DNA of 64,000 nt from Zingiber officinale (taxonomy: Eukaryota > Streptophyta > Magnoliopsida > Zingiberales > Zingiberaceae). The position numbers and the translations under genes are program-made. Each line of letters starts with the position of its first letter. Position 1 is the first letter of the stretch. The stretch spans positions 117,967,794 to 118,031,793 of the forward strand of contig NC_055991.1 of the NCBI RefSeq assembly GCF_018446385.1. Reading direction: 5' to 3'. This document shows, piece by piece, positions 15,808-51,543 of the stretch. A model generated the notes under the pieces. That model had not been told where the DNA came from. It did not search any database and worked only from the letters and a program-made list of their open reading frames with translations.

Positions 15808-15812
15808 ATGGT

Positions 15813-16939: not shown

Positions 16940-16946
16940 TATAAAG
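16940..16946 (+). promoter_or_regulatory. TATA box for the antisense gene of D
   Basis: TATAAAG on the + strand, 217 bp before the ATG at 17163, in a region free of sense-strand coding sequence. It faces into the antisense gene. This is a position-and-motif prediction only. Confidence 0.5.
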
Positions 16947-19690: not shown

Positions 19691-20380
19691 CCGCCCGGGG
19701 TATTTATAGTCGCCGGACCGACTCTCGATTTTTAACGATGGTGCTCGTCGGTTTTCCGCTCGATTTTTATAGACGCTGGCTCGTCTCTCGATTTTTAACG
19801 ATGGTGCTCGTCGGCGTTGATATTTATAGCCGGTCGGCGCGGCTCTCGATCTTTAACGATGGAGCTTGTCGGTCTTCCGCTCGGACGTTTATAGACGCCG
19901 GCTCGTCTCCCGGTTTCCCGGCCGGAGGGTTTATAGACGCCGGACTGTCTCTCGATTTTTAACGACGGAGCTCGTCGGCGCGGATATTTATAGCCGGTCG
20001 GCGCGGCTCTCGATTTTTAACGACGGAGCTCGTCGGCGCGGATATTTATAGCCGGTCGGTGCGGCTCTCGATCTTTAACGACGGAGCTCGTCGGCGCGGA
20101 TATTTATAGCCGGTCGGCGCGGCTCTCGATCTTTAACGACGGAGCTCGTCGGTGCGGATATTTATAGCCGGTCGGCACGGCTCTCGATCTTTAACGACGG
20201 AGCTTGTCGGCGCGGATATTTATAGCCGGTCGGCGCGACTCTCGATCTTTAACGACGGAGCTCGTCGGTCTTCCGCTCGGACGTTTATAGACGCCGGCTC
20301 GTCTCCCGGTTTCCCGGCCGGAGGGTTTATAGACGCCGGACCGTCTCTCGATCTTTAACGACGGAGCTCGTCGGGCTTTT
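19690..20380. repeat. 58-bp minisatellite of element D
   Basis: About twelve tandem units of 58 bp with the core GGCGCGGATATTTATAGCC and CTCGATCTTTAACGACGG. Read along the element (minus strand), most units contain CTATAAATAT, a TATA-box consensus. Some units are replaced by a variant with CCGCTCGGACGTTTATAGACG, which occurs twice as a longer block (about 19862-19967 and 20260-20365). Element F has the same unit at 61365-61839. Confidence 0.95.
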
Positions 20381-20598
20381 AAGCCTAATTTGGACAACGT
20401 TTACCTGGCCGAACGGCACAGGGTCTTCAGAATTGAGCCTTTGGCTCGTACAATATACCTCCAGCTGAGCAGCTCGGGGCCTTCGTATAACCAACCGTTC
20501 GGCTATGAACACAGAATGCCTTGGGAATAATTTGTTTCCTGCGATAAAAGGAGTACAACTATTTTGAATTTACACAAAATAGAGCAAAAGCGCACCTC

Positions 20599-21810: not shown

Positions 21811-24473
21811 AATAGTGTCCTCCAGTCGCTCGGGTATGTGATGCCCTCCATCCGATCGACATGTGCTACTAAAGATACTTGCTCGATCGGCTTCTTAGAG
21901 CCGACCGGGGATAACGCGCTTGCCAGCTTGGCCAATTCATCCGCCACTTGATTCTCCGCCCGGGGGATCTTCTGAATAATCACCTCCCTAAAGTTGAGCT
22001 TAAGTTTTTCAATAGCCTCCACGTAGAGCTTGAGCCTTGTACTATTTATCTCGAAAATCCCCGAGATTTGCTGAGCAGCCAACTGGGAATCTGAATAGAG
22101 GATGACTCGGACGGCTCCAACGTGCCGAGCGGCCTGCAATCCAGCAATAAGGGCTTCATATTCTGCTTCGTTGTTGGTCGCTCGGTAATCTAGCCGGACG
22201 GAGAGCTGCATCCGCTCTCCTTGTGGGGACAGCAAAACTATGCCAATTCCGCTCCCGTGTCTAGTGGACGATCCATCCACGAACACTTTCCACACAGCTT
22301 CGGGTTCCGGGTCCTGCACCTCCGTCACAAAATCGGCTAAGGCTTGTGCCTTGATAGCCGAGCGAGGTTGATATTGGATATCAAATTCGCTTAGCTCGGT
22401 TGTCCATTTGATGAGCCGTCTGGAAGCTTCTGGATTTAAAAGCACTCGTCCCAACGGGCTATTGGTCTTGACGATAATCGTGCGCGCCAGGAAATAAGGA
22501 CGAAGTCTCCGAGCGGCCAGGATCAGAGCAAAGGCCAACTTCTCGAGTCCGGTGTAGCGGGTTTCAACATCTTTCAAGATATGACTAAGGAAATATACAG
22601 GTTTTTCCTCACCTCCCGACCGGACTAACGCTGATCCCACAGCCTGCTCGGTTGAGGATAAATAAATGTGCAACGGTTCGCCGACAGCTGGCTTGGCCAG
22701 CACAGGTAGGGAATTTAAGTACGTCTTCAGTTCTTCAAAGGCCCGATCGCAGTCTTCATTCCATTGGAACTTTGTAGCTTTGCGGAGGACTTTGAAGAAC
22801 GGAAGGCTCCGGTCGGCAGTCTTGGAGATGAAGCGTGATAGCGCTGTAATCCGACCGGTCAGCCTCTGTACTTCCCTCATGTTTCTGGGCGGTGGCATGT
22901 CCTGAAGAGCCTTCACCTTGCTAGGATTAGCTTCAATACCCCGTTCGGTCACAATATAGCCCAAGAAACGTCCTCCTTTGGCGCCGAACAAACACTTATG
23001 AGGATTTAGCTTGACCCCATATTTTCTGAGTGTACGGAAGGTTTCTTCCATATCTTTGCATAAAGTGGCCGCTCGGAAGGATTTGATGAGGATGTCATCA
23101 ACATAGACCTCCAGGTTGTGTCCGATTTGCTCGCGGAAGACCCTATTCATCAATCTTTGATATGTTGCTCCGGCATTCTTCAGTCCGAACGGCATCACCG
23201 TATAGCAATACGTCCCGTCCGGTGTAACGAAGCTAACTTTTTCCTGATCCTCCGGGGCGAGTGACACTTGATGATAGCCTTGATAGGCATCCAGCATACA
23301 TATAAGCTCGCATCTGACTGTAGAATCTACGAGCTGGTCGATTCGGGGCAGAGGGTAGAAATCCTTCGGGCACACTTTGTTCAGATCTCTGAAGTCGATG
23401 CACACCCTCCATTTGTCGCCCGGCTTGGAGACGAGCACCACATTTGCTAACCAGCTTGGGAATTGAACCTCCCGTATGTGGCCGGCCTCTAAGAGCCTTT
23501 CTACCTCCGCTCGAATGATAATATTCTGCTCGGCGCTGAAATCTCTTCTCCTTTGTTTTACTGGCCGAGCGTCCGGCCGGACGTGAAGCTTATGTTGGGC
23601 TATGCTAGGGGAGACACCGGGCAGCTCATGCGTCGACCAGGCGAAGACGTCATGATTCATCTGGAGGCATTTGACCACTTCTTCTTTCTGTTCGACCTCC
23701 AGGTCGGCGGCAATAAAGGTTGTTGCCTCCGATCGGCTCGGATGGATCTGAACCTCCTCCTTTTCATCATAAATTAAAGCAGGAGGTTTCTCGGTTATGG
23801 CGTGTACCTCGATCCGTGGAGCCTTTCGCGCGGCACTGGATTCGGCTCGGACCATTTCCACATAGCATTTCCGAGCGGCTAACTGATCTCCTCGTACTTC
23901 ACTGATTTTGTCCTCGACCGGGAATTTGATCTTCTGATAGAACGTGGACACAACAGCTCGGAATTCGCTTAACGTCGGTCGCCCCAGTATCACGTTGTAG
24001 GATGAAGGGGAGTCGACCACCACAAAGTTTGTTGTCCTCGTTCTCCGGAGCGGTTCTTCCCCTAAGGAGATAACCAGTCTTACCTGTCCGACCGGAAGAA
24101 CCTCATTGCCCGTAAACCCGTAGAGGGGGGTTGTCATGGGCAGCAGCTCGGCTTGATCGATTTGTAGTTGATCAAAGGTCTTTCTGAAGATGATGTTGAT
24201 CGAGCTGCCAGTGTCAATGAAGATACGGTGGATGGTGTAGTTGGCTATCACCGCTTTGATGATAAGGGCATCATCATGCGGCACTTCAACTCCCTCAAGA
24301 TCCTTGGGCCCGAAACTGATCTCGGGTCCGCTCGCCTTTTCTTGGCTACAACCCACCTCATGGATTCTGAGCTGTCGGGCGCTTGCCTTTCTCGCCCTGT
24401 GTGAATCTCCTCCGGTCGGCCCACCCGCAATAATATTGATTTCTCCCCGAGAGGTGTTGTTTCTGTTCTCCAC
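21753..24473 (-). pseudogene. Element D: protease, reverse transcriptase, RNase H
   Basis: 906-codon open frame. Protease active site FIDTGSSINIIF is at about residue 83. Reverse transcriptase carries WRVCIDFRDLNKVCPKD, MPFGLKNAGATYQRLM and an intact YVDDILIK near residue 456. A gypsy RNase H (TKFQWNEDCDRAFEELK, then FLSHILKDVETRYTGLEK) follows, and then the Tat-typical second RNase H with FVDGSSTRHGSGIG near residue 730 and YSDSQLAAQQ. The frame ends in a wrong-frame tail (LLWSFCARELPHP) where relatives continue into integrase. It is in the same frame as gag but separated from it by one TAG at 24591-24593, where F has CAG (Gln). Confidence 0.9.
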
Positions 24474-24593
24474 TTCCCGAGCGGACTGCCTAGGTCGCTC
24501 ATTGGACCTTCGAGAGCGATCTTCATGCCTTGGAGGGAAACGCTGTTCGGGAGATCTTCTATATGTTCGCCGACCGGACTCTTGATGCCGCTA

Positions 24594-25756
24594 CCGGCGG
24601 TCGGGTGAAGGTGATCGACGAGGGCCACCCCGTCGTACAGGATGGGTGATTGAAGGCAGGCCCCGACAATCGCGGGTGTTGTGGGAGTCAGTATTATGGA
24701 AAGAGCAAAACATTGGGGTCCATACCCTCTTTTTCTTCATCTTTGGCCGCTCGGCCGCTACCTCTTGGACCACCGGGGACTTCGCATGATGTGCCCGGGA
24801 TGCCTCAACTCTTGGTCCTCTTGGTGGCTGATGGGCAGCGGGCTGCCTCCTTTCGGCTTGGGCCGGACGTTCGGCATGAGTTCCCTTCCGTCGGGCAGCC
24901 TCCACCTCTTCCACATTTATATACTCATTCGCCCGGTGTAGCATGTGGTCGTAGTCTCTGGGCGGTTTGCGAATGAGCGCGCGGAAGAAGTCCCCTTCCG
25001 TGAGGCCTTGCGTGAAGGCGTTTACCATTGTCTCCGAGGTGGCCGTGGGGATGTCCATCGCTACCTGATTAAATCGCTGTATATACGCCCGGAGAGATTC
25101 TCTTGGTTCTTGTTTGATGGTGAACAGGCTGACGCTTGTCCTTTGATAACGTCGGCTGCTCGCAAAGTGATGAAGAAATGCCTTTCGGAACTCCTGGAAA
25201 CTAGTGATAGAGCCGTCCGGCAGCCTCCGAAACCATCTATGTGCAGATTCCGATAGAGTGGTGAGAAATACCCGGCACTTTACGCCATCGGAGTACTGAT
25301 GCAAGGTGGCGATGCTGTCGAACTTCCCCAAATGATCGTCGGGGTCGGTCGTCCCATTGTAAGCTCTGATCGGCAGTGGTGTATAGTATTTTGGTAACGG
25401 ATCCCGATGTATGGCTTCAGAGAACTGTCGGTGAACCTGCTCGAGTGGTGCGTTCGCTCGGGGAGCTTTGCCCTTCCTATGATCCCGAACGGGAGGCTCA
25501 TCGGATGAAGATCCTTGCTCCCCGTGAGCGGGCGCGATTTCTGGGGGAGTACGGAAGAGTGCCTGAGGGAAACATATTCTGGGCGGTCTGCTTGCGCCGC
25601 CCGGCCTGCTGAAGCCGAGGTTGTTTGCTGTTGCGCTCGCTCAGCCTGTGCTTTCTCCTTTTGATGCGCCACTGTCTTGGCTGCCCTCGCCTCGACTATA
25701 GCGTCAAACTCTTCTTGTGAGAGTGCCACGGTATGTAGTCTTCCAGCCTCGTCCAT
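24594..25756 (-). pseudogene. Element D: gag
   Basis: Starts MDEAGRLHTVALSQEEFDAI at 25756, matching the N-terminus of the intact gag in F. Frameshifts near 25600 and 25300-25330 move it into the frame 25331-24591. That frame holds the gag core (TLHQYSDGVKCRVFLTTL; AYIQRFNQVAMDIPTATSE; HMLHRANEYINVEE), then a basic region with an atypical zinc motif (MFCSFHNTDSHNTRDC). The core would form the particle shell. It ends at TAG 24591-24593. Confidence 0.9.
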
Positions 25757-25784
25757 TGCCTCTGCTCGGATGCAGGTGCGTTCC

Positions 25785-25801
25785 CACAGACGGCGCCAAA
25801 T
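25785..25801 (-). other. Primer binding site of D
   Basis: On the minus strand TTGGCGCCGTCTGTGG lies two bases downstream of the 5' LTR. F has the same sequence at 55858-55874. I do not assign the tRNA. Confidence 0.85.
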
Positions 25802-26520
25802 TGATCCTGTCCGAACCAGGAGTCAACGGACGCTGGGGATGTGGCGCTCCCTGCTGGATCCTCGAATGCTCCGGCGAACCTGCAACAAAACCGAGCCGGG
25901 GGGGGTGTGTCCCGGTGACGGCCCTCCGACGCTCAAGTTAGGCGAAGGAATAAGAAAGTGGCTTAGAAAATGTAGACTTGTGTGTACCTCCGGTTGAAGA
26001 AGTGGAGGCCTTATATAGACCTCTCGAAGGAGCCTGGGCACACCAATCGAAGCAATCACCTGCTTTCGACCATGCCTAGGTGTGGGCCTGTCAGAAGGGC
26101 ATCCATAAGACCATACTGTTGATACAATCACCTGCTTTCGACCATGCCTAGGTGTGGGCCTGTCAGAAGGGCATCCATAAGACCATACTGCTACTGTATC
26201 AACCTTTCTGTGACGTGATGGTGGGGCCTTTAATAGTGCCATCTTGCGTACAGTCTAATCATCATTCCTTTGCTGACATACCATATCCCGAGCCGAGCGA
26301 ATAGGCCGCTCGGCTAACCACTGTTCCCTCGTCACGATTCCGGCCGAGCGGACACCTCCGCTCGGCCATTCTGTCCTCGGCCGAGCGGACACCTCCGCTC
26401 GGCCACTCGGCTCCGGTTTTCCTGCTTTGGCGTCGGAAACCCAAACCTTTAGCTGGGTAATCTCTGGTTCCGCTCGGACGGGACCCCATCTGTGGGTCCC
26501 CCATTCTTACCGCCGGATCA
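25802..26520 (-). repeat. 5' LTR of element D
   Basis: 719 bp, nearly identical to 15813-16530 and with the same internal duplication (26053-26118 and 26125-26190). A TATATAAGG promoter motif lies on the minus strand near 26010-26020, so transcription would run leftward into gag. Confidence 0.95.
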
Positions 26521-26996: not shown

Positions 26997-29423
26997 TGTT
27001 GGTTAGTCCTAGGAAAATCGTACCGGTTCCACTGTACAAAAATTTTGTACAAGTGTCGAACCTTTCCTTAAATAACCTATTATGTTCTTTAGAAGTTAAA
27101 TTAGGAATCGCAGACGGAACTTAATATCATTGATTCCAAATTTAACTTATCTGTTCTTAATGGTTTAGATTTGAATCGCAAACGAAACTTAACACTATTG
27201 ATTCAAATCCACCTATGTTATTAATTCCATTAAATATTAATTTCCAAAATTGGCTTCCAGGACTACATGACGAGGCACATGGCCTTCTTGGATATGGGAG
27301 CAACCACCACCGCCTAGATAAAGCCTTTTAAGGAAAGCTAATATTTAATTTCCTTAAATAACTCTAGGTTAACCAAAAAGAACAATCGAATCACAAATTC
27401 GAAAAAGAAGAAAACATAAACTTGAAAAACTAGATCTAATGCCTCTTGTGTTTGGAATTCTTACAAAGAAAAATAACTAGCATAATGCGGAAAACAATTG
27501 CTAATTATACCTTCTCTTTGTATGCTAATGAACTTGAGATCTTCTGCCGTATTCCTCGCCTCGCCTTGGACGTCGTGTGGGCGACGAACCTCCAAGATGA
27601 TCACCACTCAAAAGCTTTCTTCCTCTTCCTCTAAAATCCGGCCACCACCACCACCAAGGAGAAGAGAGCAAAGGGAAAAGGAGAAGAGAGAGGGTCGGCC
27701 ACCAAGAGATCCTCCAAGCAAGAGAATAAGAATTGTGTCTCATGAGGCCTCCTCACCCCTTCTTTTAAACTACTTGCCCAAGGCAAATAAGGGAAGAATT
27801 TTTACAAAAAATTAAAATCTTCCTCTAATTTTTTCTTTTCCCTGTTAATTTTCCTTTTCTTTCCTCTTGATTGAATCAATCACCAAATCAATTTGAATAA
27901 TGATTTTATTTTTTTTGTTTTGGCCGGCCACTTTACTTGGGCACCAAGCAAGGGTGGCCGGCCCCCATAAGAAGAAAGGAATATTATTTTTTTATAAAAT
28001 TTTACAAGAAGAAAAACTCTTATAAAATTTTACAAGCTCTCTTTCCTAAAGTAGGAGTTAAAAAGGAAAGTTCTAAAAATTAAAAACCATGTTTTTAAAA
28101 TTTAAAACTTCTCTTATAAAATTTTCTTTTTTAACATGGTGATAGAAAATTTAAATTTTAAAACTTATCCTCCTTTTTTCTTAAACCATGAGGATGGTTA
28201 AAAAAGGAAAGTTTTAAAATCTTTTAAATTTTCTTTTAAAACATGTGGCCTAATTCAAATAAGGAAAGTTTTAAAAATTAAAATCTCTCTTTTAAAACTT
28301 ATAGTTTTCTACAAAGAGAAGATTTTAAAAATTCAAAACAACCCTCCTTGTTTGATTAATGTGGCCGGCCCCTACTAGTTTGTTTACCAAACAATAGGGT
28401 CGGCCCCTATTGGAAGAGGATGTGGCTGGCCCTGGCTTGGTCACCAAGCATTGGATCAGCCCCCTTCTTGGACACCAAGATGAGCTTATATTTGGATGGA
28501 CTTGAGGCTTTAGTGAGGCTACGACAGGGACCTAGAGGAGAAATTGATTTTGGCCTTCCGATGAGCTTGAGTATCCCGTGCTCGCCCCGAACACACTACT
28601 CAAGTTCATCGATAATAACTCATTCCACTAGAGAGTTATTATCGTACTACCGCACCAATCCCAAATTACATTATGGGATCCTTCTTATCATGAGTGTGTT
28701 AGTCTCCTTGTGTTTAAGATAACGAATGTCCACTAATTAAGTAAGTTACTGACAACTCACTTAATTAATATCTAGCTCCAAGAGTAGTACCACTCAACTT
28801 CATTGTCATGTCGGACTAAGTCCACCTGCAGGGTTTAACATGGCAATTCTTATGAGCTCCTCTTGGGGACATTCTCAACCTAGATAACTAGGACACAGAT
28901 TCCTTCTATAATCAACAACACACACTATAAGTAATATCATTTCCCAACTTATCAGGCATATTGATTTATCGAGCTAAACCTCACCTTTTGATAAGTCAAA
29001 GAAATAAATATTAAATATATGTCCTTGTTATTATATTAGGATTAAGAGCACACACTTCCATAATAACTAAGTTCTAGTTCTTTTACTAAGTTAGTACAAA
29101 AAGAACTTACTTAAATGGTCCTACTCAATACACTTAGAGTGTACCAGTGTAATTTATTAGTCAAGATAAACTAATACTTAATTACACTAAAACTATTCTA
29201 ATGGTTTGTTCCTTTCCATCTTAGTCGCGAGCAACTATTTATAATTTATAAAGAACCGACAACATGATCTTCTGAGTGTGACACCACACTCCATGTTATC
29301 TACTATATAAATTAATTGAGCAATTACATTTAACAAATAAATGTAGATATTGACCAAATGTGATTCTTTTATTTCAAAAAATAAATGTTTACAAAAGTTA
29401 GGCTTTTAGTATACACTCTAACA
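26997..29423 (-). repeat. 5' LTR of element C
   Basis: About 2.43 kb, beginning TGTTGGTTAG and ending CTCTAACA. Collinear with the 3' LTR. Its TATA site has changed from TATAAAAA to TTTAAAAG near 27764-27772, which may have weakened the promoter of this copy. Confidence 0.95.
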
Positions 29424-29546
29424 GTTAGGACTTCACCACTGCCTAACCTCCAGTTAGGACTTCCAAACGCCTAACCTCCAGTTAGGGCTTACAGACGGCT
29501 AACCTCCAGTTAGGACTTCCACATTGCCTAAACTCCAGTTAGGACT
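29424..29546. repeat. Solo LTR A, second part: tandem CCTAAC hairpins
   Basis: Four more units of the roughly 30-bp repeat with stems CCTAAC/GTTAGG, the first being the target duplication copy of C. It ends at ggact, the target duplication of B (29542-29546). Confidence 0.9.
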
Positions 29547-31207
29547 TGTTAGGACCAAAAGTAGCTAGAGGGGGGGGGGGGGGGGGGGAATAGCTCGTCG
29601 CGTTCGCTCGGTGCGCTTCGTTGCTTGGCGTTGCTTGTTTCTTCTTGGATGTGCAGCGGAAAATACAGAAACAAATACAAAACGCTAACACTAGGATTTT
29701 ACTTGGTATCCACCTCACAAGAGGTGACTAATCCAAAGATCCACACCAACGCACACACCCTCCACTATGAATAACACTCCTTTATGGTAACTACCAAAAG
29801 CGGAGAAGCCCTACAACACTCTCAATACAAGAAGAAGAAAGGGAAATACAAGTTAAGCAAAAGCTTACAAGATGTGCAGTAAAAACCCTAACCCTAACTT
29901 CTTCCTCTTGCAATAGATCCGCCTCTTGACTTGGAAAGCCTCCAAGAACCTTCAAGAACTGGCGATCACGTGCTTGTAGAGAGCTGTGGAGGAGCTGGAA
30001 TGAATCTGAGAAGAGCTCGTGAAGGGATGCCGAAGACCACGCTCGCCTGCGGCTTTACGCCAACGGTCGGATCCCGATCGATCGGATTGTTCCAATCGTC
30101 GAGGCTTTGATCGATCCACGGATCGATTGAGCGCCCCCATCGATCAACAGCCGCTGATCGATCCACGGATCGATTCGGGCACTCCTCCAACCGAAGCCCC
30201 ACGATACGGTCGCGACCTGAATCGATCCACGGATCGATCCGAGCTTTTCACTGGAATGACGGATCGATCCACCGATCGATCCACGCCTGAATCGATCCAC
30301 GGATCGATCCGACTTGGTTTTGCCCAAAACCAAGTCCCAAACCTCCTAACCAACATCCGGTCAACCTTGACTGTTGGTACATCATGCCCAGCATCCGGTC
30401 ACTCCCTGCCAGACTCCCCACCAGTGTCCGGTCAATCCTTTGACCCACTTGGACTTTACTCGACGTCAAGTATCCGGTCACTCCATTGACCTACTTGGAC
30501 TTCCACCGATGTCCGGTCAACCTTGACCCATCCGGACTTCCCCTTGCCAAGTATCCAGTCAATCCTTTGACCTACTTGGACTTCCCAACACCAGATGTCC
30601 GATCATCCTTGATCCATCTGGATTTCCTTCCTTGCCTGGCTTCACTCACTGGGACTTTCACCTAGCTTCACTCACTAGGATTTTCCATCCGCCTAGCTTC
30701 ACTCACTAGGGCTTTCACCTGGCTTTACTCACCAGGACTTTCGCCTAGCTTCACTCACTAGGACTTTCACCTGGCTTCACTCACCGGGATTTCCTTCACC
30801 TAGCTTCACTCACTAGGACTTTCACCTGGCTTCACTCACCAGGATTTCCTTCTGCCTAGCTTCACTCACTAGGACTTTCACCTGGCTTCACTCACCTGGA
30901 TTTTCCCCTAGCTTCACTCACTAGGACTTTCACCTGGCTTCACTCACCAGGATTTCCTTCTGCCTAGCTTCACTCACTAGGACTTTCACCTGGCTTCACT
31001 CACCAGGATTTCCTTCTGCCTAGCTTCACTCACTAGGACTTCCATATGCCTAACTTGCCAGTTAGGACTTCCCAGTCAAGTATCCAGTCAACCTTGACCT
31101 ACTTGACTCTTCTTCAATCAATATCTTATTGTCAAACATCTAAACCCTAACCAAGACTCAGCTTGGTTAACCAGGTCACCCTTGACCTGAAAGATATTGC
31201 ACCAACA
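29547..31207 (-). repeat. 3' LTR of element B
   Basis: 1661 bp, TGTTAGG...CCAACA. It contains a run of 19 G at 29570-29588 (11 to 12 in the other LTR), the GATCGATC palindrome array at 30062-30320, and the covarying hairpin array at 30351-31190. Confidence 0.95.
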
Positions 31208-33569
31208 ATCTCCCCCTTTTTGATGTTTGACAATACCACAATAACACTTACAATCCCACATGTAAGTTAGGCTAATCCTATAGCCTCCTTCTTCATGCCA
31301 CTAGGTAATGAACCCATAAATTAAGCTTTTCATTCTCCCCCTAAGAGGGCAAACTCCCTCTAGGTAATGAAAACCTAACTTACTTCCTTTCATTCTCCCC
31401 CTATTGGCACACATCAACTCCTTACAAAAAAAACATCAACCCGTCTTTGGACACACATCAACTTATGCTCCAATTTTGGGCACTCTTCAACAACTCCATT
31501 TGTTGAAGACTCTCCCCCTGAAGAGTTGCTCATCGTGATCACAATTTCACTCATTGTGATCAACTCAATATTGAAGGTCCCATACCCTTCATTATCCTTA
31601 ACTTCTCCCTCAACGTTGACAAATACCCAACCTTGAGCATTTTCAACCACTTGAGTTGCCACTTGAAATGATGAGGATATCCACTCCCCATTTATCCCCA
31701 TTTCAAGTTTAAATGCTCAACCTTGAGCAAGTTCACAACAGAAGGTTAACCACCTTCCAAGGTTCATGAAAAATAATTTTCATGCCTTTAAAGAGTCCCT
31801 CCCCCTAAAGACATGGTGGTAACTTCTGTCATTGCACCAACAATGACTTGGAATCCCTAAACCTTTAGGAAACCCAGATTTAGAAGTTTTGAGGTTCAAA
31901 TGTTCAAAGTTTGAAACAAACCTCAACCTAAACTTCAATGAAGTCTTCCTTAACCATTCCATCCTTGTTTTCATCACGAAAACACCCCTTTTTATGTATA
32001 CAAATGTATTTTAAGGGTTTGGAAAGGTTACCTAGACTAAAATAGGTTCAAAGTGCTGAAATCAGGCTTTCCCAGCCAAAATCAGCAACTTGGATCGATT
32101 GGAATTGGGTTCCAATCGATTGAACCTTTCTGAATCGATCCACTGATCGATTCAGACTACCTGGATCGATCGGCTGATCGATCCAGCGAGCTACTGCTCG
32201 TGAGATTTGCCTTCTGAATCGATCCATGGATCGATTCAGGCACTCCAATCGATCCATGGATCGATCGGAGCTCTGATAGTTGCTGAAATTCAACTTCAGA
32301 AACCCCTAGAAAATCCTACAAAAATCCAAAAATTATGAAATTTCGTGTAGACATTGTTTAGGGCATATATTATCAAGGAAAAATAGTTTTCTATGAAAAT
32401 ACATCATATTTTCAAAGATTGACATAAACTTGAAAACTTGCAAAAACTTTAGTGTTTTCTTCACGTTTGTGTCTAACTACTCAATGGTGATTACTATCAA
32501 AAGATAGCCTTCACCAAGGTTTTCCAAAAACATTTTAAAAACATTTTCAAAACCAATATCCCATCATGTTCCTTGGGCATAATGCACATGACTTGTACAT
32601 TAGCTTTCCCAATGATGGGAATACACATAACTATGTGTTTTGATGAACCTAAAACTCAAAAGAATGCACTAAATCAACATTTTGAGTTTTGTTCATCTTC
32701 CTAACATCTCACTTGTATCTAATGTGCACTAAAACACATACAAGTCATCTTATAGTCCTTGTGAGATGTAAGATTTTGGTTTTGCCCTATTCTAGGGATC
32801 ATGCATATCTATCTAGGCATTTTAGATATATACTAGACATCCACCAAGGATGTCACTTGTTAATAATTGTTGTTAAATGCCTTTTGTCCTTAATTACAAG
32901 GAATTAAGCTAATGCATGATAATGTTATGGCATACATCAAAATAAAATAACTTTCAAAAGAAATATTCCTATAACTACATGATGTATGCATGACATGACA
33001 TAGTATTTTTGTATTTTTCATGATACGTCATGAATGCAAAAGTAGACATGATGTCATGGCATATGATGAGCAAACAATCATGGCAAGATTTAGCATAAAT
33101 AAAATATACCTAGATTAGCTATCTAAGTATCCTTAAAACCTTAGCTAAACTTACAACTTAAACCTAGATTGCCCTTAAGTGCGTCAAGAAAACGCCAAAA
33201 CCTAAATTGGCATTTCTAATTCCCTTGATTAATTTATGCCAATTGAAATTAAGCATATTCCTCAAATGTTGGCATATTTCATTTTTCCACAAGAGTAGCA
33301 CTTTAAGGTTAAGGCCCGGATTGCCTTAAATTTCCTAAGAACATACCAAAATCCCAACTTGGTAGCTCTTATGAATTTCCCAATGTGTGCCTTTTAAGAT
33401 TAAAATCAAATTTTCACCACTAGGCACATTTTACTCTTTCAAGGAGTAAATAATAGTTCCATTTCATTTTCAAAGGTTAACAAAAACCTTGAAAATGCTC
33501 CTTGAGTGTCAATTTCCTCAAAGTTGGGTTAACTACCCTTCTAATTGGAGTTGACACTCTCTAACCCAT
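31208..33569. other. 3' internal region of B, no gene
   Basis: A/T-rich interior between gag and the 3' LTR. Short open frames such as 31414-31701 show no recognisable domain. It includes a second palindrome array at 32088-32275. I see no trace of pol. Confidence 0.65.
32088..32275. repeat. Palindrome array in the interior of B
   Basis: Five or six palindromes of the ATCGATCCATGGATCGAT type with paired outer bases, for example CTGAATCGATCC...GGATCGATTCAG and CCTGGATCGATC...GATCGATCCAG. It is the same kind of array as in the LTRs but outside them. Confidence 0.85.
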
Positions 33570-35417
33570 TTATGGGGTAGAGAAGATGCTCCTAGGAACC
33601 CAACACCTATTGGTGCTCCTTGGATGCTCTAGGTATTCACTAGGGATAACTTCCCTAGATACCTTCCTAGTGACCTTGTTTGGCTTCTTAGAAGCCTTGG
33701 TCACATTTTCTAAGTCAACTCTAGGGATAGCCTCCCTTGTGACCTTGTTGGTGACTTTCTTAGACTTCTTAGAAGTCTTAGTCACTTTGGTTGCAAAAAT
33801 ACTCTTAGGGATGACTTCCCTAGTATTCTTGACTTGACCACTAAACCTAGGGTTTGTTCCATAACTGTATGGAACCCTATGATAACTAGGCACATCCTTC
33901 TTAGCCTTTGGTTTGTATCCCAAACCTCTATGGCTATTTGATGGCTTTGACTTTCCTAGCCCTAGGTTTTGCTCATTTTGCCCTTTTAGGATATTTTCCA
34001 TCCTGTTTAGGGTCTTTTCCATTTTATCAAGTTTTGATCTCAAGACTTGATTTTCTATCATTAAATCCTTAGAATTTGGTTTTTCATTAAGTCCATGAGC
34101 ATTTTGGTTTCTAGGCTTGTATCTAAAATCCTTAGAGTTATTGCCTAGACTTTTACCTACATTCCTAACCCTAGGAGTAATAGTCTTAGCATGTAGGGCC
34201 ACATGCTTTTCCTTAAAGCCCTCATGCTTTCTATTCTTATGGTAAATTGCATTAAAATGATAAAAGTTAGACCTATCATGCTTTTTACCATAATGTAAAG
34301 GAGTAGGCTCAATAAATGTTACCTTCTTCTTTACCTTGGAGGCTCCCCCTTGACTAGTGCCTCCTTGAGCCTTGACCTTCTTCTTCCCCTTGGGGCATTG
34401 ACTACGATAATGCCCCTTTTGATTGCAAGAGAAGCATATTATATGCTCCTTGCTCTTCTTTGTGTTGGGGATGGTCTCCTTGGGCTTCACCTTGCCCTTT
34501 TGTGCCACTTGGCCCTTCTTCTTGGCTAATTTAGGGCACTTGCTCTTGTAGTGCCCATGTTCCCTACATTCAAAGCATATAATATGATTTTTATTATTAA
34601 TTGAAATATTTATACCTTTGCTTGTAGGGGTGGCATCTTTTTCTTTGGATCCGGAGGTAGAAGCTTCCTCTTGATCGGACCTTGATTCTCCTCCATTTGA
34701 TTTTTCTTGACTTGTGGAGGTAGAAGCTTCTTCCTCCTTTTCTTCTCTTGACTCGGATGTAGAGGCTTCTCCTTCTTCTTGATCCGGTGTCACCAAGGAT
34801 TGCTCCCCCTCAATCCTAGAGGTGGAGGCTTCATCATCTTGAATATGAAACAAGGAGTATGCTCCCTCCTTGTTCCCTTCGTTGCATTCCCTTGAGGATG
34901 AAGCTTCTTGGATTTCCTCTTCTTCGGAGGTTGAGCATCTCTCAACCTCGGAATCCTCCTCTTGGTCTTGCTCCAAAGAGTCTCCCTCTCTGGATACTTC
35001 TTGATCTCGTACAGTGGAGGGGATCTCTTCATGAAGCTTGGCCAATTTGCTCCAAAGCTCCTTGGCATCTTCAAATTCTCCAACTTGAGCCAAGATGTGG
35101 CTAGGCAATAAGTTGACCAAAAGCTTGGTCACTTTGTCATTTGCCTCGCCCCTTTGAATTTGCTCCAAGCTCCATCTGCTTTTCTTTAGAAGCTTGCCCT
35201 TGGAGTTCGTTGGAGCTTTGAAGCCTTCCATTAGAGCAAACCATTGCTCTATCTCCATCATAAGGAAGTTTTCGATTCTTGATCTCCAAGAATCAAAACT
35301 TGTGGAAGTGTATGGTGGAGCCACCCTTGTGTCAAATCCAAGTCCATCTTGGAATTGCATCTTGAAGTTGAGCTTGATGAGGTCTTGAACTTGAAGAATT
35401 TGCTCCAACTTCTTCAC
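33570..35417 (-). CDS. Element B: gag
   Basis: 615-codon open frame. The first codon is GTG; the likely true start is the ATG at 35360 (MQFQDGLGFDTRVAPP). A UBN2-type gag core lies near residues 40-135 (SFDSWRSRIENFLMMEIEQW; LLVNLLPSHILAQVGEF), followed by a long Glu/Ser-rich acidic linker (residues 140-260). Two CCHC zinc knuckles follow, CFECREHGHYKSKC near 281 and CFSCNQKGHYRSQC near 327. The C-terminal half is Lys-rich with a coiled coil (residues 440-480) and ends in repeated TREVIPKS / SREVIPSE motifs. It would package element RNA; the enzymes must come from another element. It has no internal stop, which is rare in this window. Confidence 0.8.
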   Translation of the reverse strand: MKKLEQILQVQDLIKLNFKMQFQDGLGFDTRVAPPYTSTSFDSWRSRIENFLMMEIEQWFALMEGFKAPTNSKGKLLKKSRWSLEQIQRGEANDKVTKLLVNLLPSHILAQVGEFEDAKELWSKLAKLHEEIPSTVRDQEVSREGDSLEQDQEEDSEVERCSTSEEEEIQEASSSRECNEGNKEGAYSLFHIQDDEASTSRIEGEQSLVTPDQEEGEASTSESREEKEEEASTSTSQEKSNGGESRSDQEEASTSGSKEKDATPTSKGINISINNKNHIICFECREHGHYKSKCPKLAKKKGQVAQKGKVKPKETIPNTKKSKEHIICFSCNQKGHYRSQCPKGKKKVKAQGGTSQGGASKVKKKVTFIEPTPLHYGKKHDRSNFYHFNAIYHKNRKHEGFKEKHVALHAKTITPRVRNVGKSLGNNSKDFRYKPRNQNAHGLNEKPNSKDLMIENQVLRSKLDKMEKTLNRMENILKGQNEQNLGLGKSKPSNSHRGLGYKPKAKKDVPSYHRVPYSYGTNPRFSGQVKNTREVIPKSIFATKVTKTSKKSKKVTNKVTREAIPRVDLENVTKASKKPNKVTRKVSREVIPSEYLEHPRSTNRCWVPRSIFSTP

Positions 35418-35478
35418 CCTCTAGCTTTTCTTGATATGCTTGACCCTTCCGGCGATGATTCCGGTGAAGAGCGTCCTC

Positions 35479-35492
35479 GCTCTGATACCACT
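35479..35492 (-). other. Primer binding site of B
   Basis: GCTCTGATACCACT abutting the 5' LTR at 35493. This is the tRNA-iMet type. Confidence 0.85.
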
Positions 35493-37125
35493 TGTTAGGA
35501 CCAAAAGTAGCTAGAGGGGGGGGGGTGAATAGCTCGTCGCGTTCGCTCGGTGCGCTTCGTTGCTTGGCGTTGCTTGTTTCTTCTTGGATGTGCAGCGGAA
35601 AATACAGAAACAAATACAAAACGCTAACACTAGGATTTTACTTGGTATCCACCTCACAAGAGGTGACTAATCCAAGGATCCACACCAACGCACACACCCT
35701 CTACTATGAATAACACTCCTTTATGGTAACTACCAAAGGCGGAGAAGCCCTACAACACTCTCAATACAAGAAGAAGAAAGGGAAATACAAGTTAAGCAAA
35801 AGCTTACAAGATGTGCAGTAAAAACCCTAACCCTAACTTCTTCCTCTTGCAATAGATCCGCCTCTTGACTTGGAAAGCCTCCAAGAACCTTCAAGAACTG
35901 GCGATCACGTGCTTGTAGAGAGCTGTGGAGGAGCTGGAATGAATCTGAGAAGAGCTCGTGAAGGGATGCCGAAGACCACGCTCGCCTGCGGCTTTAAACC
36001 CGACGCAACGGTCGGATCCCGATCGATTCGAATGTTCCGAATCGATCGGGGAGGCTTGGATCGATCCACGGATCGATTGAGCGCCCCCAGTCGAAAAACG
36101 CTACCGGATCGATCCACGGATCGATTCGGCCATTCCAATCGATCCGTGGATCGATCGGGAGACTTGCCTTCCGAATCGATCCACGGATCGATCCGAGCTT
36201 TCACTGGAATGATCGGATCGATCCACCGATCGATCCACGGATCGATCCACGGATCGATCCAAGGACTGATTTTGCCCAAAACCAAGTCCCAAACCTCCTA
36301 ACCAACATCCGGTCAACCTTGACTGTTGGTACATCATGCCTAGCATCCGGTCACTCCCTTGACCTGCCATGACTCCCCACCAAGTGTCCGGTCAATCCCT
36401 TTGACCCACTTGGACTTTTACTCGACCTGCCAAGTATCCGGCCACTCCATTGACCTACTTGGACTTCCACCAGATGTCTGGTCAACCTTGACCCATCTGG
36501 ATTTCCTTCCTTGCCAAGTATCCAGTCAATCCTTTGACCTACTTGGACTTCCCAACACCAGATGTCTGATCATCCTTGATCCATCTGGATTTCCCCTTGC
36601 TTGGCTTCACTCACCAGGACTTTCACCTAGCTTCACTCACTAGGGTTTTCCATCTGCCTAGCTTCACTCACTAGGACTTTCACCTGGCTTCACTCACCAG
36701 GATTTCCTTCTGCCTAGCTTCACTCACTAGGACTTTCACCTGGCTTCACTCACCAGGATTTCCTTCTGCCTAGCTTCACTCACTAGGACTTTCACCTGGC
36801 TTCACTCACCAGGATTTCCTTCTGCCTAGCTTCACTCACTAGGACTTTCACCTGGCTTCACTCACCAGGATTTCCTTCTGCCTAGCTTCACTCACTAGGA
36901 CTTTCACCTGGCTTCACTCACCAGGATTTCCTTCTGCCTAGCTTCACTCACTAGGACTTCCATCTGCCTAACTTGCCAGTTAGGACTTCCCAGTCAAGTA
37001 TCCAGTCAACCTTGACCTACTTGACTCTTCTTCAATCAATATCTTATTGTCAAACATCTAAACCCTAACCAAGACTCAGCTTGGTTAACCAGGTCACCCT
37101 TGACCTGAAGGATATTGCACCAACA
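35493..37125 (-). repeat. 5' LTR of element B
   Basis: 1633 bp, same layout as 29547-31207. Palindrome array at about 36015-36262, long hairpins at 36302-36588, short alternating hairpins at about 36598-36985, and a last long hairpin at 36993-37025. Confidence 0.95.
36302..37025. repeat. Covarying hairpin array in the LTR of B
   Basis: Long units share an inner stem (GGTCAA/TTGACC) reached through a TCC spacer, with outer stems that differ from unit to unit: CCAAGTG/CACTTGG (36380-36413), CCAAGTA/TACTTGG (36430-36462, 36514-36546), CCAGATG/CATCTGG (36470-36500, 36558-36588), GTCAAGTA/TACTTGAC (36993-37025). In 36558-36588 the inner stem is GATCA/TGATC. Short units alternate CCTGG/CCAGG and CCTAG/CTAGG around the same CTTCACTCA loop in a 56-bp tandem repeat. 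Confidence 0.9.
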
Positions 37126-37130
37126 GGACT

Positions 37131-37347
37131 TTCACAATCAAGTCTCCTGTCATCCCTGACCTACTTGACTTGTATTCTCATCAACCTAGTCAACCCTTTG
37201 ACCATCTCGACAACCGGACGATTGTCCTAGCAATCTCCATATATTGTCAAACATCAAAACTCAAATCTCGACTCAAGCTTGACTCAACTCAAGCTTAGTC
37301 AAACTGGTCAAACTGGTCAAACTTGACCAAAGGAAATTACCCCAACA
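37131..37347. repeat. Solo LTR A, third part
   Basis: End of LTR A after the excursion into B. It runs from the CCTAAC repeat remnant to the terminal CCCCAACA and is followed by the right target duplication aaagt. Confidence 0.88.
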
Positions 37348-42119: not shown

Positions 42120-42349
42120 AAACATGTAACGACCCGCCTTCTGGGTACTAGGCTGTAAGGCGAACCGCTACAGTTACGCTAAGCTATACTACTGTAGCTA
42201 AATTACTAATGCGGAAAACTGGGCTGAATAAAATTTTTCTTTTACTAAACTATTGGGGTTGCCTCTGTTAACTCTGTGAGAGTGAGATTCCACGTCCCAC
42301 TACCTTCTAGATGTTCATAGCTAGGCTGAGGAGGCGAAATTGGAGCTTT

Positions 42350-42600
42350 GGATCGGTCCGTGGAACGATCCATTGAGCCCCACGCGAACACTGGCTGGAT
42401 CGGTCTGGGGACCGATCCAGTAGAGGCTGGATCGGTCGGCAGACCGATCCAGGTATGCCTGGATCTACTGTATCGCGCTGGATCGGTCGGCAGACCGATC
42501 CAGGATGATACAGTATGCTACTGTATCCGTCTGGATCGGTCGGCAGACCGATCCAGTGGCACAGTTCAGCCTCTGATCGGTCTGGAGACCGATCAGAGTC
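42350..42600. repeat. Palindrome array in the 3' LTR of E
   Basis: Several GGATCGGTC-NNNN-GACCGATCC hairpins plus one with stem CTCTGATCGGTC/GACCGATCAGAG (42571-42598). The 5' LTR has a different set at 49490-49745. Confidence 0.92.
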
Positions 42601-44178
42601 TGATTTCGCCTCTGGAACTCTGATTTCAGCACTCTGGCGTGCCGAAATACCCCATACGACTATCTAATACCTGATAAGCTATTTAAATAACATGTAGAAA
42701 CATTCTAACAAGGTTAACAGCAGTTTATAATTGACTTGTAGGGTTTAAACATTCTAAGGTTTGAAATACTTGAAATGAGAAACTAAACCACAAGGTGCTA
42801 AAGTTCAATTGCTAAGTCCCCTAAGGACCTTTGATTCCAGTTCCTGCCACACACACCACCTTCGCATTGACCTCCAGCCTCCACTGCTAGTCCATTTTCC
42901 TTTTACCTGTATCTGCAGTATAAGGAAAATAGTATCTGTAAGCTAAGAGCTTAGTAAGAAACCATCTACCTCACTAAATCATGCATACGATGCAAATATG
43001 CTTGTAAATCATGCTTTTGAAAAAAAAACATACTGAAGATGCAAGCATGGCATGGCATGGTATCATACAAGCATGGCATATCTAATACTGAACATATAAA
43101 CTGAACTTAAAACTAGCATCGAAACTGCACTGAAACAACATGCTGAGCTAAACTATCTAAACTGAAGCTGCAATCAAACTCAACTAGCATAACTGTTTTT
43201 GAGTTTTGAAAACTAATACATAATAAGTGAACATAATAAACATACTTTGCGGTGCGCGCATCCCTAACTAGACCCGGGTTTGCAAGTCCCGAATTTAGTA
43301 GGGTCTACTAGGTTATCTAAACCTAGCGACTAGGTTATCTGAACCTTACTAGGATATCTGATCCAGTACAGTGCCACTGAAAATAAAATACTGAATAGCT
43401 AATGCTGTTTTGCTGAAACTAGGTTATCTGAACCTAGGACTAGGTTATCTGAACCTAGAGGCGACTATGGGAGCCCACCCATTGGATATCTAATCCATAT
43501 AAGCTGAAATAACTATTTTACTGGTTTAAATGCTTCTAATGCATTTATCTAAGCTGTTAAAATGCCTAAGTTGCATTTTAGCTGATCTAATCATTTTATC
43601 GAACACTTGGTGTGCCTAAACCCTCCTCTCCATTAGGGAATCGCTTCTAGGCACCCAACAGCGTCTATGATCCCCAACTGAAGGAGAATAGACGTATTCG
43701 GCCCATCTAAAAGCGCTAAACTAATCCCTAATTGGCGAAGAGAGCTAAATACACCCTAGGTATCGATAAAAATCTGCATACATCCTAACTAGAGCATAAA
43801 AACTCAAGCGGAAACTATTATACTGCAGGTGAGGGGTTTCTTACCTTCTAATCGTAATTTCTTACGATTCTATTCGCTAGAACTCCGGTGGAGGTGGTCC
43901 TCTCGACGATCCGCTCACGTCTTCGCGTTCCTCTCGCGGAGGAGAGCCTCTTTCGTGTAGGAGTCGTCGCCGGAAGATGGCCCTAGGGACCTTGGGGCTT
44001 GGTGTGCCGTGCGTGAGGGAGAGGAGAGGGTGGCGTCGGCGTTGAGGGTTTGGAGAGGGAGAAGGTTGCCGAACCAAGCAAAAATAAACCAAACCCACTT
44101 AAACCTTCTATTTATATTAAGTGGTTAATTCGGCTAAACCCAACTTAAATATAATCGTTCCCCTTCCCTTTCAGCACA

Positions 44179-44253
44179 GCCCTGCTGGGTCAACTGGTTA
44201 TGACATTGTCCCTCTAAACCATAGGTCTCGGGTTCAATCCCCGCCTAGGCCGT
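44179..44253 (+). other. tRNA-like sequence in the 3' LTR of E
   Basis: On the + strand, antisense to the element, TGGGTCAACTGG (44186-44197) fits the pol III A box and GGGTTCAATCC (44230-44240) the B box at tRNA-like spacing, with a T-rich stretch downstream. The acceptor arms do not pair, so it is not a functional tRNA gene; a SINE or tRNA relic is likely. Copy in the other LTR at 51343-51417. Confidence 0.55.
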
Positions 44254-44409
44254 TTTACGCTTATATTTCTTTTTGCTACTTCCGCTACTCGGAAAATTCC
44301 GGAAAAATATCTAAAAATTCCAGAAAAATCCTAGAATATTTCTAAAATAGTTTTGAGAATTTTCGGGCGTTACAATCCCCCATACCTTATAAAAAGTTCG
44401 TCCTCGAAC

Positions 44410-49257: not shown

Positions 49258-51538
49258 TGTAACGACCCGCCTTCTGGGTACTAGGCTGTAAGGCGAACCG
49301 CTACAGTTACGCTAAGCTATACTACTGTAGCTAAATTACTAATGCGGAAAACTGGGCTGAATAAAATTTTTCTTTTACTAAACTATTGGGGTTGCCTCTG
49401 TTAACTCTGTGAGAGTGAGATTCCACGTCCCACTACCTTCTAGATGTTCATAGCTAGGCTGAGGAGGCGAAATTGGAGCTTTGGATCGGTCCGTGGAACG
49501 ATCCATTGAGCCCCACGCGAACACTGGCTGGATCGGTCTGGGGACCGATCCAGTAGAGGCTGGATCGGTCGGCAGACCGATCCAGGTATAGCTGGATCGG
49601 TCGGCTGACCGATCCAGGTATAGCTGGATCGGTCGGCTGACCGATCCAGGAGGATACAGTATGCTACTGTATCTCACTGGATCGGTCGGCCGACCGATCC
49701 AGTGGCACTGCTCAGGCACTGATCGGTCTGGAGACCGATCAGTGTCTGATTTCGGCCGGGAATTCTGATTTCAGCACTCTGGCGTGCCAAAATACCCCAT
49801 ACAACTATCTAATACCTGATAAGCTATTTTAGTAACATGTAGGAACATTCTAACAAGGTTAACAGCAGTTTATAACCATCTTGTAGGGTTTAAATATTCT
49901 AAGGTTTAAAATACTTGAAATGAGAACTAAACCACAAAGTGCTAAAGTTCAATTGCTAAGTTCCCTAAGGACCTTTGATTCCAGTTCCTGCCACACACAC
50001 CACCTTCGCATTGACCTCCAGCCTTCACTGCTAGTCCATTTTCCTTTTACCTGTATCTGCAGTATAAGGAAAATAGTATCTGTAAGCTAAGAGCTTAGTA
50101 AGAAACCATCTACCTCACTAAATCATGCATACGATGCAAATATGCTTGTAAATCATGCTTTTGAAAAAAAAACATACTGAAGATGCAAGCATGGCATGGC
50201 ATGGTATCATACAAGCATGGCATATCTAATACTGAACATATAAACTGAACTTAAAACTAGCATCGAAACTGCACTGAAACAACATGCTGAGCTAAACTAT
50301 CTAAACTGAAGCTGCAATCAAACTCAACTAGCATAACTGTTTTTGAGTTTTGAAAACTAATACATAATAAGTGAACATAATAAACATACTGTTGGGCCCG
50401 GCAACTGTACTTGCTGTGCGCGCATCCCTAACTAGACCCGGGTTTGCAAGTCCCGAATTTAGTAGGGTCTACTAGGTTATCTAAACCTAGCGACTAGGTT
50501 ATCTGAACCTTACTAGGATATCTGATCCAGTACAGTGCCACTGAAAATAAAATACTGAATAGCTAATGCTGTTTTGCTGAAACTAGGTTATCTGAACCTA
50601 GGACTAGGTTATCTGAACCTAGAGGCGACTATGGGAGCCCACCCATTGGATATCTAATCCATATAAGCTGAAATAACTATTTTACTGGTTTAAATGCTTC
50701 TAATGCATTTATCTAAGCTGTTAAAATGCCTAAGTTGCATTTTAGCTGATCTAATCATTTTATCGAACACTTGGTGTGCCTAAACCCTCCTCTCCATTAG
50801 GGAATCGCTTCTAGGCACCCAACAGCGTCTATGATCCCCAACTGAAGGAGAATAGACGTATTCGGCCCATCTAAAAGCGCTAAACTAATCCCTAATTGGC
50901 GAAGAGAGCTAAATACACCCTAGGTATCGATAAAAATCTGCATACATCCTAACTAGAGCATAAAAACTCAAGCGGAAACTATTATACTGCAGGTGAGGGG
51001 TTTCTTACCTTCTAATCGTAATTTCTTACGATTCTATTCGCTAGAACTCCGGTGGAGGTGGTCCTCTCGACGATCCGCTCACGTCTTCGCGTTCCTCTCG
51101 CGGAGGAGAGCCTCTTTCGTGTAGGAGTCGTCGCCGGAAGATGGCCCTAGGGACCTTGGGGCTTGGTGTGCCGTGCGTGAGGGAGAGGAGAGGGTGGCGT
51201 CGGCGTTGAGGGTTTGGAGAGGGAGAAGGTTGCCGAACCAAGCAAAAATAAACCAAACCCACTTAAACCTTCTATTTATATTAAGTGGTTAATTCGGCTA
51301 AACCCAACTTAAATATAATCGTTCCCCTTCCCTTTCAGCACAGCCCTGCTGGGTCAACTGGTTATGACATTGTCCCTCTAAACCATAGGTCTCGGGTTCA
51401 ATCCCCGCCTAGGCCGTTTTACGCTTATATTTCTTTTTGCTACTTCCGCTACTCGGAAAATTCCGGAAAAATATCTAAAAATTCCAGAAAAATCCTAGAA
51501 TATTTCTAAAATAGTTTTGAGAATTTTCGGGCGTTACA
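49258..51538 (-). repeat. 5' LTR of element E
   Basis: 2281 bp. Identical or nearly so to the 3' LTR over the first 330 bp and over the last 1.5 kb, but clearly different between about 49590 and 50010, and with a 20-odd-bp insertion (TGTTGGGCCCGGCAAC) near 50391. Contains a palindrome array (49490-49745) and a tRNA-like copy (51343-51417). Confidence 0.95.
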
Positions 51539-51543
51539 AAACA

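What the first reader, a model, noticed from the sequence alone, without database searches (positions are those of the whole stretch)
36302..37025. Array of hairpins with covarying stems in the LTR of element B
Successive long units keep the same inner stem (GGTCAA/TTGACC) and TCC spacer, but their outer 7-bp stems differ: CCAAGTG/CACTTGG, CCAAGTA/TACTTGG, CCAGATG/CATCTGG, GTCAAGTA/TACTTGAC. In one unit the inner stem is GATCA/TGATC. The short tandem units alternate CCTGG/CCAGG and CCTAG/CTAGG around an identical loop. Changes occur in pairs that keep the pairing, which a plain tandem repeat would not do. Either the folded RNA or DNA is selected, or the units arise by a process that copies one arm from the other, such as template switching at hairpins during reverse transcription.
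Basis: seen in the sequence. Interest (0 to 1): 0.88.

Follow-up and report, generated by a model that had tools for sequence, protein, structure and literature searches.

The report
Covarying hairpin array in Sirevirus LTR
A plant jumping element of a known kind (a Sirevirus) carries a row of small hairpins in its control region, and comparing related units across the same genome shows that the two sides of the outer stem tend to change together, so the pairing itself, and not one fixed sequence, seems to have been kept.

Summary
The hairpins are there, at the stated coordinates. Element B is a gag-only Sirevirus-type (Ty1/copia) retrotransposon on the minus strand, with Sirevirus PBS, PPTs, junction and poly-C signal. 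The array lies in U3, where Sireviruses are known to carry palindromic repeated motifs. So the kind of feature is known.

The covariation claim is partly supported. Genome-wide, 16,746 units fit a pattern with both outer arms free. In 200 listed units there are 12 perfectly paired arm types; stem pairs rank 1-4 and 9 of 120 column pairs and jointly exceed 1,000 tree-based simulations, though only one pair is significant alone on the stricter tree. Arms are conserved on internal branches.

Against it: in 41 orthologous LTRs of family B compensatory change is nearly absent. Rare arm variants are mostly one-sided decay. At one pair a G-C form exists in 38 copies, but unpaired C·C is commoner. The alternating short units amount to one paired change amplified in tandem.

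Stepwise compensation under selection fits better than arm-copying, which is not excluded. Which strand folds is undetermined. Verdict: new variant of a known kind.

The parts
35493..37125 (-). 5' LTR of element B (sense strand is minus; TG...CA)
   Evidence: self-BLAST LTR pair 90.5% identical; junctions and PBS
29547..31207 (-). 3' LTR of element B
   Evidence: 5-bp TSD GGACT at 29542-29546 and 37126-37130 read
36302..37025 (-). hairpin array in U3 of the 5' LTR, about 100-823 nt from the LTR start in sense direction
36302..36329 (-). long unit 1, CCAACA/TGTTGG with inner GTCAA/TTGAC
36339..36371 (-). long unit 2, CCTAGCA/TGCCATG, degenerate here; the unit that reads A-T, A.C, C.C, C.T or G-C at pair 4 in other copies
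36380..36413 (-). long unit 3, CCAAGTG/CACTTGG
36430..36462 (-). long unit 4, CCAAGTA/TACTTGG
36470..36500 (-). long unit 5, CCAGATG/CATCTGG, inner GGTCAA/TTGACC
36514..36546 (-). long unit 6, CCAAGTA/TACTTGG
36558..36588 (-). long unit 7, CCAGATG/CATCTGG, inner GATCA/TGATC
36604..36966 (-). short units CCTGG/CCAGG and CCTAG/CTAGG around loop CTTCACTCA, 56-bp dimer repeated
   Evidence: TRF; 13 exact loops in this array, 14 in that of the 3' LTR
36967..36984 (-). short unit CCTAAC/GTTAGG
36993..37025 (-). last long unit, GTCAAGTA/TACTTGAC
30350..31107 (-). the same array in the 3' LTR
36041..36265 (-). second palindromic array (AATCGATCC/GGATCGATT type) between the hairpins and the probable promoter; ends approximate
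35993..35998 (-). TATA-like TTTAAA, at the place that reads CTTTATAAAG in the related LTR near 7905
   Evidence: no exact TATA[AT]A in 41 copies, so weak
35479..35487 (-). PBS TATCAGAGC after the intervening AGTGG
33570..35420 (-). gag-like ORF (616 codons stop to stop), CCHC zinc knuckles, weak copia-gag match
31210..31217 (-). terminal PPT AGGGGGAG followed by AT/TG; four more in the linker begin at 31806, 31519, 31402, 31342

Best explanation
The array is the palindromic cis-region of a Sirevirus-type LTR, in U3 upstream of the probable promoter, so it is present as promoter DNA in both LTRs and as RNA near the 3' end of the element's transcript. Each long unit has a nearly invariant inner dyad (GGTCA/TGACC, holding the W-box core TTGACY as I recall it) that is probably read by sequence, and an outer 7-bp stem whose sequence is free but whose pairing is kept by selection on the copies that still transpose. 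Outer stems change mostly one base pair at a time through mismatched or wobble intermediates; unit types are then multiplied by tandem duplication and transposition, and after insertion the arms decay one-sidedly. Shown: location, palindromes, covariation across unit types, conservation of arms on internal branches, a G-C form one base away from a common A.C form. Inferred: that selection acts on a folded hairpin (RNA, or extruded DNA), and what the hairpin does (promoter regulation or RNA 3'-end function).
For: Genome-wide 16,746 units with both arms free, 0 for the reversed control. Of the first 100 listed there, 71 pair 7 of 7; of the first 100 listed in a second loop family (1,844 matches), 69 do. 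Twelve perfect arm types pooled; variable stem pairs rank 1, 2, 3, 4 and 9 of 120 column pairs. The joint score was not reached in 1,000 null runs on either of two trees. Pairs 3 and 5 covary by transversion. Substitutions in stems 16 internal/96 terminal against linkers 78/160, Fisher p = 2.6e-4; without CpG columns 7/70 against 55/120, p = 1.1e-4. Compensated CCTGGCA/TGCCAGG in 38 copies, all the same 33-mer, one base away from a form seen in the list; the six fetched copies form one clade among A.C and A-T copies.
Against: Within family B, compensatory change is nearly absent. Taken one by one, only pair 5 is significant on the stricter tree (E about 0.0025; pairs 7, 6, 3 E 0.16, 0.38, 0.41; pair 4 E about 11), and one loop column pair that is not in the stem scores as high as pair 3. 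The pair 3 exchange is confined to the CCT class, so it may be one event. At pair 4 of unit 2, unpaired lineages are commoner than the compensated one: 13 of 100 listed units (5 CCTCGCA/TGCCAGG, 7 CCTCGCA/TGCTAGG, 1 with a further mismatch), none of those 100 compensated, 38 compensated genome-wide. Of 40 units chosen by 3' arm only, 12 are fully paired. One-sided deviations show no strand bias: 21 G-T against 15 A-C in short units, 17 against 18 in long units. Unit types may have been perfect palindromes at birth.
Confidence: 0.5

Rival explanations
1. The units are dyads for dimeric DNA-binding proteins (for example WRKY factors on the paired TTGACC boxes), and pairing of the outer arms reflects two identical half-sites, not a folded strand.
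For: TTGACY occurs 13 times in the 724-bp array (both strands) against about 1.3 expected from the window average, which itself includes such arrays. Inner stems have 0 internal-branch and 30 terminal-branch substitutions outside CpG columns. Bousios 2010 recovered mainly stress-related factor sites in Sirevirus motifs (PMC2829016, section read).
Against: The outer arms come in at least 12 sequences, which one factor would not be expected to accept; a half-site model must invoke many factors.
Confidence: 0.22
2. Template switching or quasi-palindrome correction: during reverse transcription or DNA replication one arm is copied from the other, creating and mending perfect stems without selection on structure.
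For: The process is described for RNA genes (PMC8794818, abstract, opening text and outline seen). A reverse transcriptase passes through this region at every cycle (general knowledge).
Against: Mismatched units have spread without correction (29 of 100 listed S1 units are not perfect, 21 of them at pair 4 of the CCTAGCA class). Linked paired types differ by single pairs in 12 of 13 links. A unit with arms of two different types was found once. Each single-pair correction would however look like ordinary compensation, so this rival is weakened, not excluded.
Confidence: 0.13
3. Frozen descent: a few perfect palindromes arose long ago and spread by duplication, and the covariation only records that ancestry, with no constraint on pairing today.
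For: Little covariation within family B; the short-unit alternation is one 56-bp dimer; unpaired lineages are successful; only 11 of 23 fetched units with the four commoner 3' arms were fully paired.
Against: Arms evolve slower than linkers, more so on internal than on terminal branches, though conservation of arm sequence could also reflect factor binding. At least 14 paired replacements are needed to link the paired types. Most other column pairs with the same ancestry covary less.
Confidence: 0.13
4. Paired C-to-T decay: methylated CG or CHG sites in both arms decay independently and mimic compensation.
For: Several paired differences are transitions at CG or CWG sites, such as CCTGG/CCAGG against CCTAG/CTAGG.
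Against: Pairs 3 and 5 covary by transversion; mixed short types expected from independent decay are rare (7 of 394 among the two main types and their mixtures); the arm-conservation result survives removal of CpG columns (CHG columns were not removed).
Confidence: 0.02

Closest known systems
Sirevirus palindromic repeated motifs (RM) of Bousios et al. 2010 (PMC2829016; passages, one section)
   Same: Ty1/copia Sirevirus; many palindromic units clustered in the upper half of the LTR, upstream of the TATA box; the palindrome differs from element to element; some share CGGTC/GACCG, close to the inner GGTC/GACC here.
   Different: Here the units lack a symmetrical CGG-CCG core, have two stacked stems with a 3-nt bulge, come in several arm types within one LTR, and include a second class of short hairpins. 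A covariation test is not in the parts I read.
[quoted passage not shown] 2016; not held; described in passages of PMC10760457, and PMC5311732)
   Same: Hairpin-forming palindromes in the regulatory part of the LTR, with high sequence variability.
   Different: There the evidence is small-RNA mapping and one main motif, CACCGGACNNNGTCCGGTG; here it is paired divergence of many arm types, with no small-RNA data.
Template-switch maintenance of RNA hairpins (PMC8794818; abstract, opening text and outline)
   Same: Explains perfect stems and compensatory changes in hairpins.
   Different: Its abstract stresses multi-base compensatory change; here nearly all links between types are single pairs and mismatches persist.

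Membership tests
Sirevirus (Ty1/copia) | PBS TATCAGAGC after a 5-base intervening sequence (ATTGG or AGTGG) | tested here: met
   AGTGG then TATCAGAGC next to the 5' LTR; definition from PMC2829016
Sirevirus (Ty1/copia) | multiple AGGGGGAG PPTs near the 3' LTR, terminal one followed by AT/TG | tested here: met
   five in the linker (beginning at 31806 to 31217) plus two inside the gag-like ORF, none on the other strand; AGGGGGAG-AT-TG junction
Sirevirus (Ty1/copia) | poly-C-rich integrase signal at the LTR 3' end | tested here: met
   C-runs ending about 24 nt before the end of both LTRs (read)
Sirevirus (Ty1/copia) | copia-type gag and pol | tested here: not met
   gag-like ORF only (CCHC knuckles; PF14223 at E = 0.0025, below its cut-off); no other stop-to-stop ORF of 150 codons or more between the LTRs. 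Short pol remnants were not sought by homology. Hence filed as a non-autonomous, Sirevirus-type element. Database search of the gag: 7,997 candidates scored, none at E <= 0.001
Sirevirus (Ty1/copia) | conserved TATA box after the motif cluster | tested here: inconclusive
   TTTAAA at the homologous place; 0 of 41 copies have TATA[AT]A in the piece searched
Sirevirus RM array | at least 8 palindromic copies per element, LTR copies mostly in the upper half of the LTR | tested here: met
   eight long units (one degenerate) and 13 short loops between about 100 and 823 nt of a 1,633-nt LTR; definition
Sirevirus RM array | symmetrical CGG-CCG core | tested here: not met
   units carry (C)GGTCA/TGACC without the closing G; Tnd-1 is a published exception
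structured RNA supported by covariation | covariation of stem pairs above a phylogenetic null | tested here: met
   joint test across unit types; one pair significant alone on the stricter tree; nearly absent between orthologues
structured RNA supported by covariation | structure formed in the transcript | not testable with these tools
   needs probing; fold z-scores only, similar on both strands

The most novel reading that the evidence does not exclude
The outer stems are a pairing-only code: a hairpin in the U3 part of the transcript is required for the element's cycle, while its arm sequence is free and diversifies (perhaps away from host small RNAs), giving a large natural series of compensated variants of one LTR hairpin within a single plant genome.
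Probability: 0.25. Interest if true: 0.75.

Novelty: new variant of a known kind. Interest (0 to 1): 0.5.

Why it matters
Sirevirus palindromes have been discussed as promoter motifs and as hairpins that feed small-RNA silencing. Covariation of the outer arms separates the two ideas: sequence-reading factors explain the fixed inner dyad, not the freely changing but paired outer arms. With more than sixteen thousand units in one genome, including paired, wobble and unpaired states, the question becomes directly testable.

Tried and rejected
The 8 double changes left after the C·C position are, by inspection, in L020 (3, unit replaced), L026 and L027 (2, units swapped), L029 (1, unit of another type), L005 (1) and L040 (1); L010 and L017 lack one unit. 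I dropped no rows. Short-unit alternation as independent covariation: rejected, two types in one 56-bp dimer. Strand test by wobble direction: no bias. Relatives of the gag: none found. Papers: Sirevirus with covariation and Sirevirus with compensatory gave one paper each, neither about LTR hairpins by title and abstract start; a wider search gave two unrelated ones. The count of CCTCGCA/TGCGAGG did not complete; by reading, none is among the places listed (first 100 or so of 2,915). The first version of the pair script failed on a repeated string and was replaced.

Full report
What is there. The window lies in a 3.09-Gb assembly of 211 contigs. The size, and hits mostly on contigs C1 to C22, of about 89-194 Mb where a length was shown, fit the haplotype-resolved ginger genome (11 pseudochromosome pairs, 3.1 Gb; abstract start of PMC8342452 seen in the listing), but the species is my inference. 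Element B occupies 29547-37125 on the minus strand: LTRs 29547-31207 and 35493-37125, 90.5% identical, flanked by the 5-bp duplication GGACT. It has the Sirevirus PBS, linker PPTs, AT/TG junction and poly-C signal (definitions from passages of PMC2829016). It carries a gag-like ORF with CCHC knuckles and a weak copia-gag match and no other ORF of 150 codons or more between the LTRs.

Where the array lies. In sense direction the array runs from about 100 to 823 nt of a 1,633-nt LTR. A second palindromic array (36041-36265) and a TATA-like TTTAAA follow it downstream; in a related LTR in the window the same place reads CTTTATAAAG. None of 41 copies has an exact TATA[AT]A in the piece searched, so the promoter is probable, not shown. 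On this reading the array is U3: promoter DNA, and RNA only near the 3' end of the transcript. Published Sirevirus motifs start 200-400 bp into the LTR and lie upstream of TATA (section read).

Chance. The array folds at z = -7.4 in the sense strand and -6.5 in the other, none of 20 shuffles reaching it in either case. Of 2,077 GG[AG][CT]TT anchors in 90 loci and three window pieces, 408 have a perfect 6-bp complement just upstream, against 22.9 on average with swapped arms. This count leaves out most short units, whose stem is 5 bp on the plus strand.

Within the family. I aligned the long-unit region of 41 LTRs: the 40 best-scored genome copies (of 3,904 first-look candidates; one is the window's 5' LTR) and the window's 3' LTR. 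Of 3,487 cells over 87 pairs, 3,373 have the majority state, 18 a double change to another Watson-Crick pair, 72 an A-C or G-T deviation and 24 another mismatch. Ten of the 18 are A-T at unit 2, pair 4, where the majority state is itself C·C; 6 of the other 8 lie where a unit is replaced by another type. So orthologous units hardly covary. Yet the arms are constrained: on a tree from the adjoining LTR part, stem columns took 16 internal and 96 terminal substitutions and linkers 78 and 160 (Fisher p = 2.6e-4). With CpG columns removed the counts are 7/70 and 55/120 (p = 1.1e-4); inner stems then have 0 internal and 30 terminal, outer stems 7 and 40 (p = 0.028). Terminal branches mix pre- and post-insertion change, and stems are slower there too (96 in 173 columns against 160 in 145), so this is a coarse test; it shows constraint on arm sequence, not on pairing as such.

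Across unit types. A pattern with both outer arms free except the outermost CC/GG has 16,746 matches in the genome and none for the reversed control. Only the first 100 are listed; 71 are fully paired. In a second loop family (1,844 matches, first 100 listed) 69 are fully paired. The two lists share some places; pooled they give 72 unique 33-mers and 12 perfect arm types. By corrected mutual information the variable stem pairs rank 1, 2, 3, 4 and 9 of 120 column pairs. Against null alignments that redistribute the substitutions of each branch, pair 5 alone is significant on the stricter tree (E about 0.0025; pairs 7, 6, 3 and 4: 0.16, 0.38, 0.41 and 11), and pairs 5 and 7 on the loop-only tree; a loop column pair (15, 16) scores as high as pair 3. 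Jointly, the stem sum of 186.8 was not reached in 1,000 null runs on either tree (maxima 88.6 and 71.2), and the true pairing is best of all 120 pairings of five arm columns, at 85.6% Watson-Crick cells. Pairs 3 and 5 exchange purine-pyrimidine for pyrimidine-purine, so methylation decay is not the cause there; for pair 3 this is confined to the CCT class.

A check blind to pairing. I fetched 40 units from the places listed (the first of 1,433), chosen by their 3' arm only and favouring rare arms: allowing a shift, 12 pair 7 of 7, 18 pair 6, 9 pair 5 and 1 pairs 4. By arm, fully paired: CATTTGG 5 of 10, TATCTGG 3 of 4, TAGCTGG 2 of 5, CATCTGG 1 of 4, TAGTTGG 1 of 7, TATTTGG 0 of 3, other arms 0 of 7. 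So new paired types appear (CCAAATG, CCAGATA, CCAACTA), but rare arms are mostly one-sided, often C-to-T. Likewise, of 61 units picked for a G or C at the 3' partner of pair 3, none is Watson-Crick there (some are T-G wobbles). Mismatches can be transmitted, since several recur in hits 5-6 kb apart as expected for LTR pairs.

One step caught. At pair 4 of unit 2, 47 aligned copies read C·C 17, A·C 11 (G·U in the sense RNA), A-T 10, G-C 6 (the fetched ones), C·T 2 and one gap. The compensated CCTGGCA/TGCCAGG form exists in 38 copies genome-wide, all the same 33-mer, which is one base away from a CCTAGCA/TGCCAGG form in the list. The six fetched copies form one clade among A·C and A-T copies (FastTree on the aligned long-unit region, midpoint root, support not examined). 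Compensation thus seems to have happened by one further change, but pairing at this position is not strictly required, as the unpaired C·C form is commoner.

Mechanism. Fourteen paired types need at least 14 paired replacements; 12 of the 13 links are single-pair steps and the CCT class needs a two-pair step. Wobble or mismatched intermediates between several neighbouring types are present. This favours stepwise compensation over block copying, although single-pair corrections by template switching cannot be told apart. The wobble direction shows no strand bias, so RNA and extruded DNA remain open. The inner dyad holds the W-box core as I recall it, 13 times in 724 bp, and may be a factor site.

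Known or new. Palindromic, hairpin-forming LTR arrays are a described Sirevirus feature (PMC2829016, passages and one section; PMC10760457 and PMC5311732, passages; the 2016 Genome Research paper itself was not held). For two-stem units with freely changing, covarying outer arms I found no description in the held library, which lacks most subscription papers.

Noticed in passing
36041-36265 and 32090-32290: Palindromic units of the AATCGATCC/GGATCGATT kind stand just upstream of the probable promoter and again in the linker before the 3' LTR; the core resembles the published Tnd-1 motif ACAATCGATTGT.
   Followed up: no
7408-8828, 29424-29546, 37126-37340 (approximate): A related LTR with its own hairpin units is interrupted twice inside its array: by a copia element (TSD GTTAG by reading) and by element B (TSD GGACT). 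Whether hairpin arrays attract insertions was not tested.
   Followed up: partly
8829-11261 and 26997-29423: LTR pair of about 2.4 kb, 95.8% identical, of a copia-type element that holds a nested Ty3/gypsy-type element (about 15812-26520, LTRs 98.3% identical).
   Followed up: no
2498-2677: Two-stem units of another family (CCAGCTA/TAGCTGG and similar arms).
   Followed up: partly
19949-20268 and 61386-61839: 58-bp tandem arrays, about 92% alike, in inverse orientation, each next to a gag-pol region with reverse transcriptase.
   Followed up: no
42125-44375 and 49258-51539: LTR-like pair, 97.0% identical, around a gag-pol region, with tandem CTGGATCGGTCGGC...GACCGATCCAG palindromic units.
   Followed up: no
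genome-wide, for example G000:C1:1418206 and C1:1423769 (5,563 apart), C1:4241386 and C1:4247335 (5,949 apart): Many unit hits come in pairs about 5-6 kb apart on one strand, as expected for LTR pairs of a large family of short elements.
   Followed up: no
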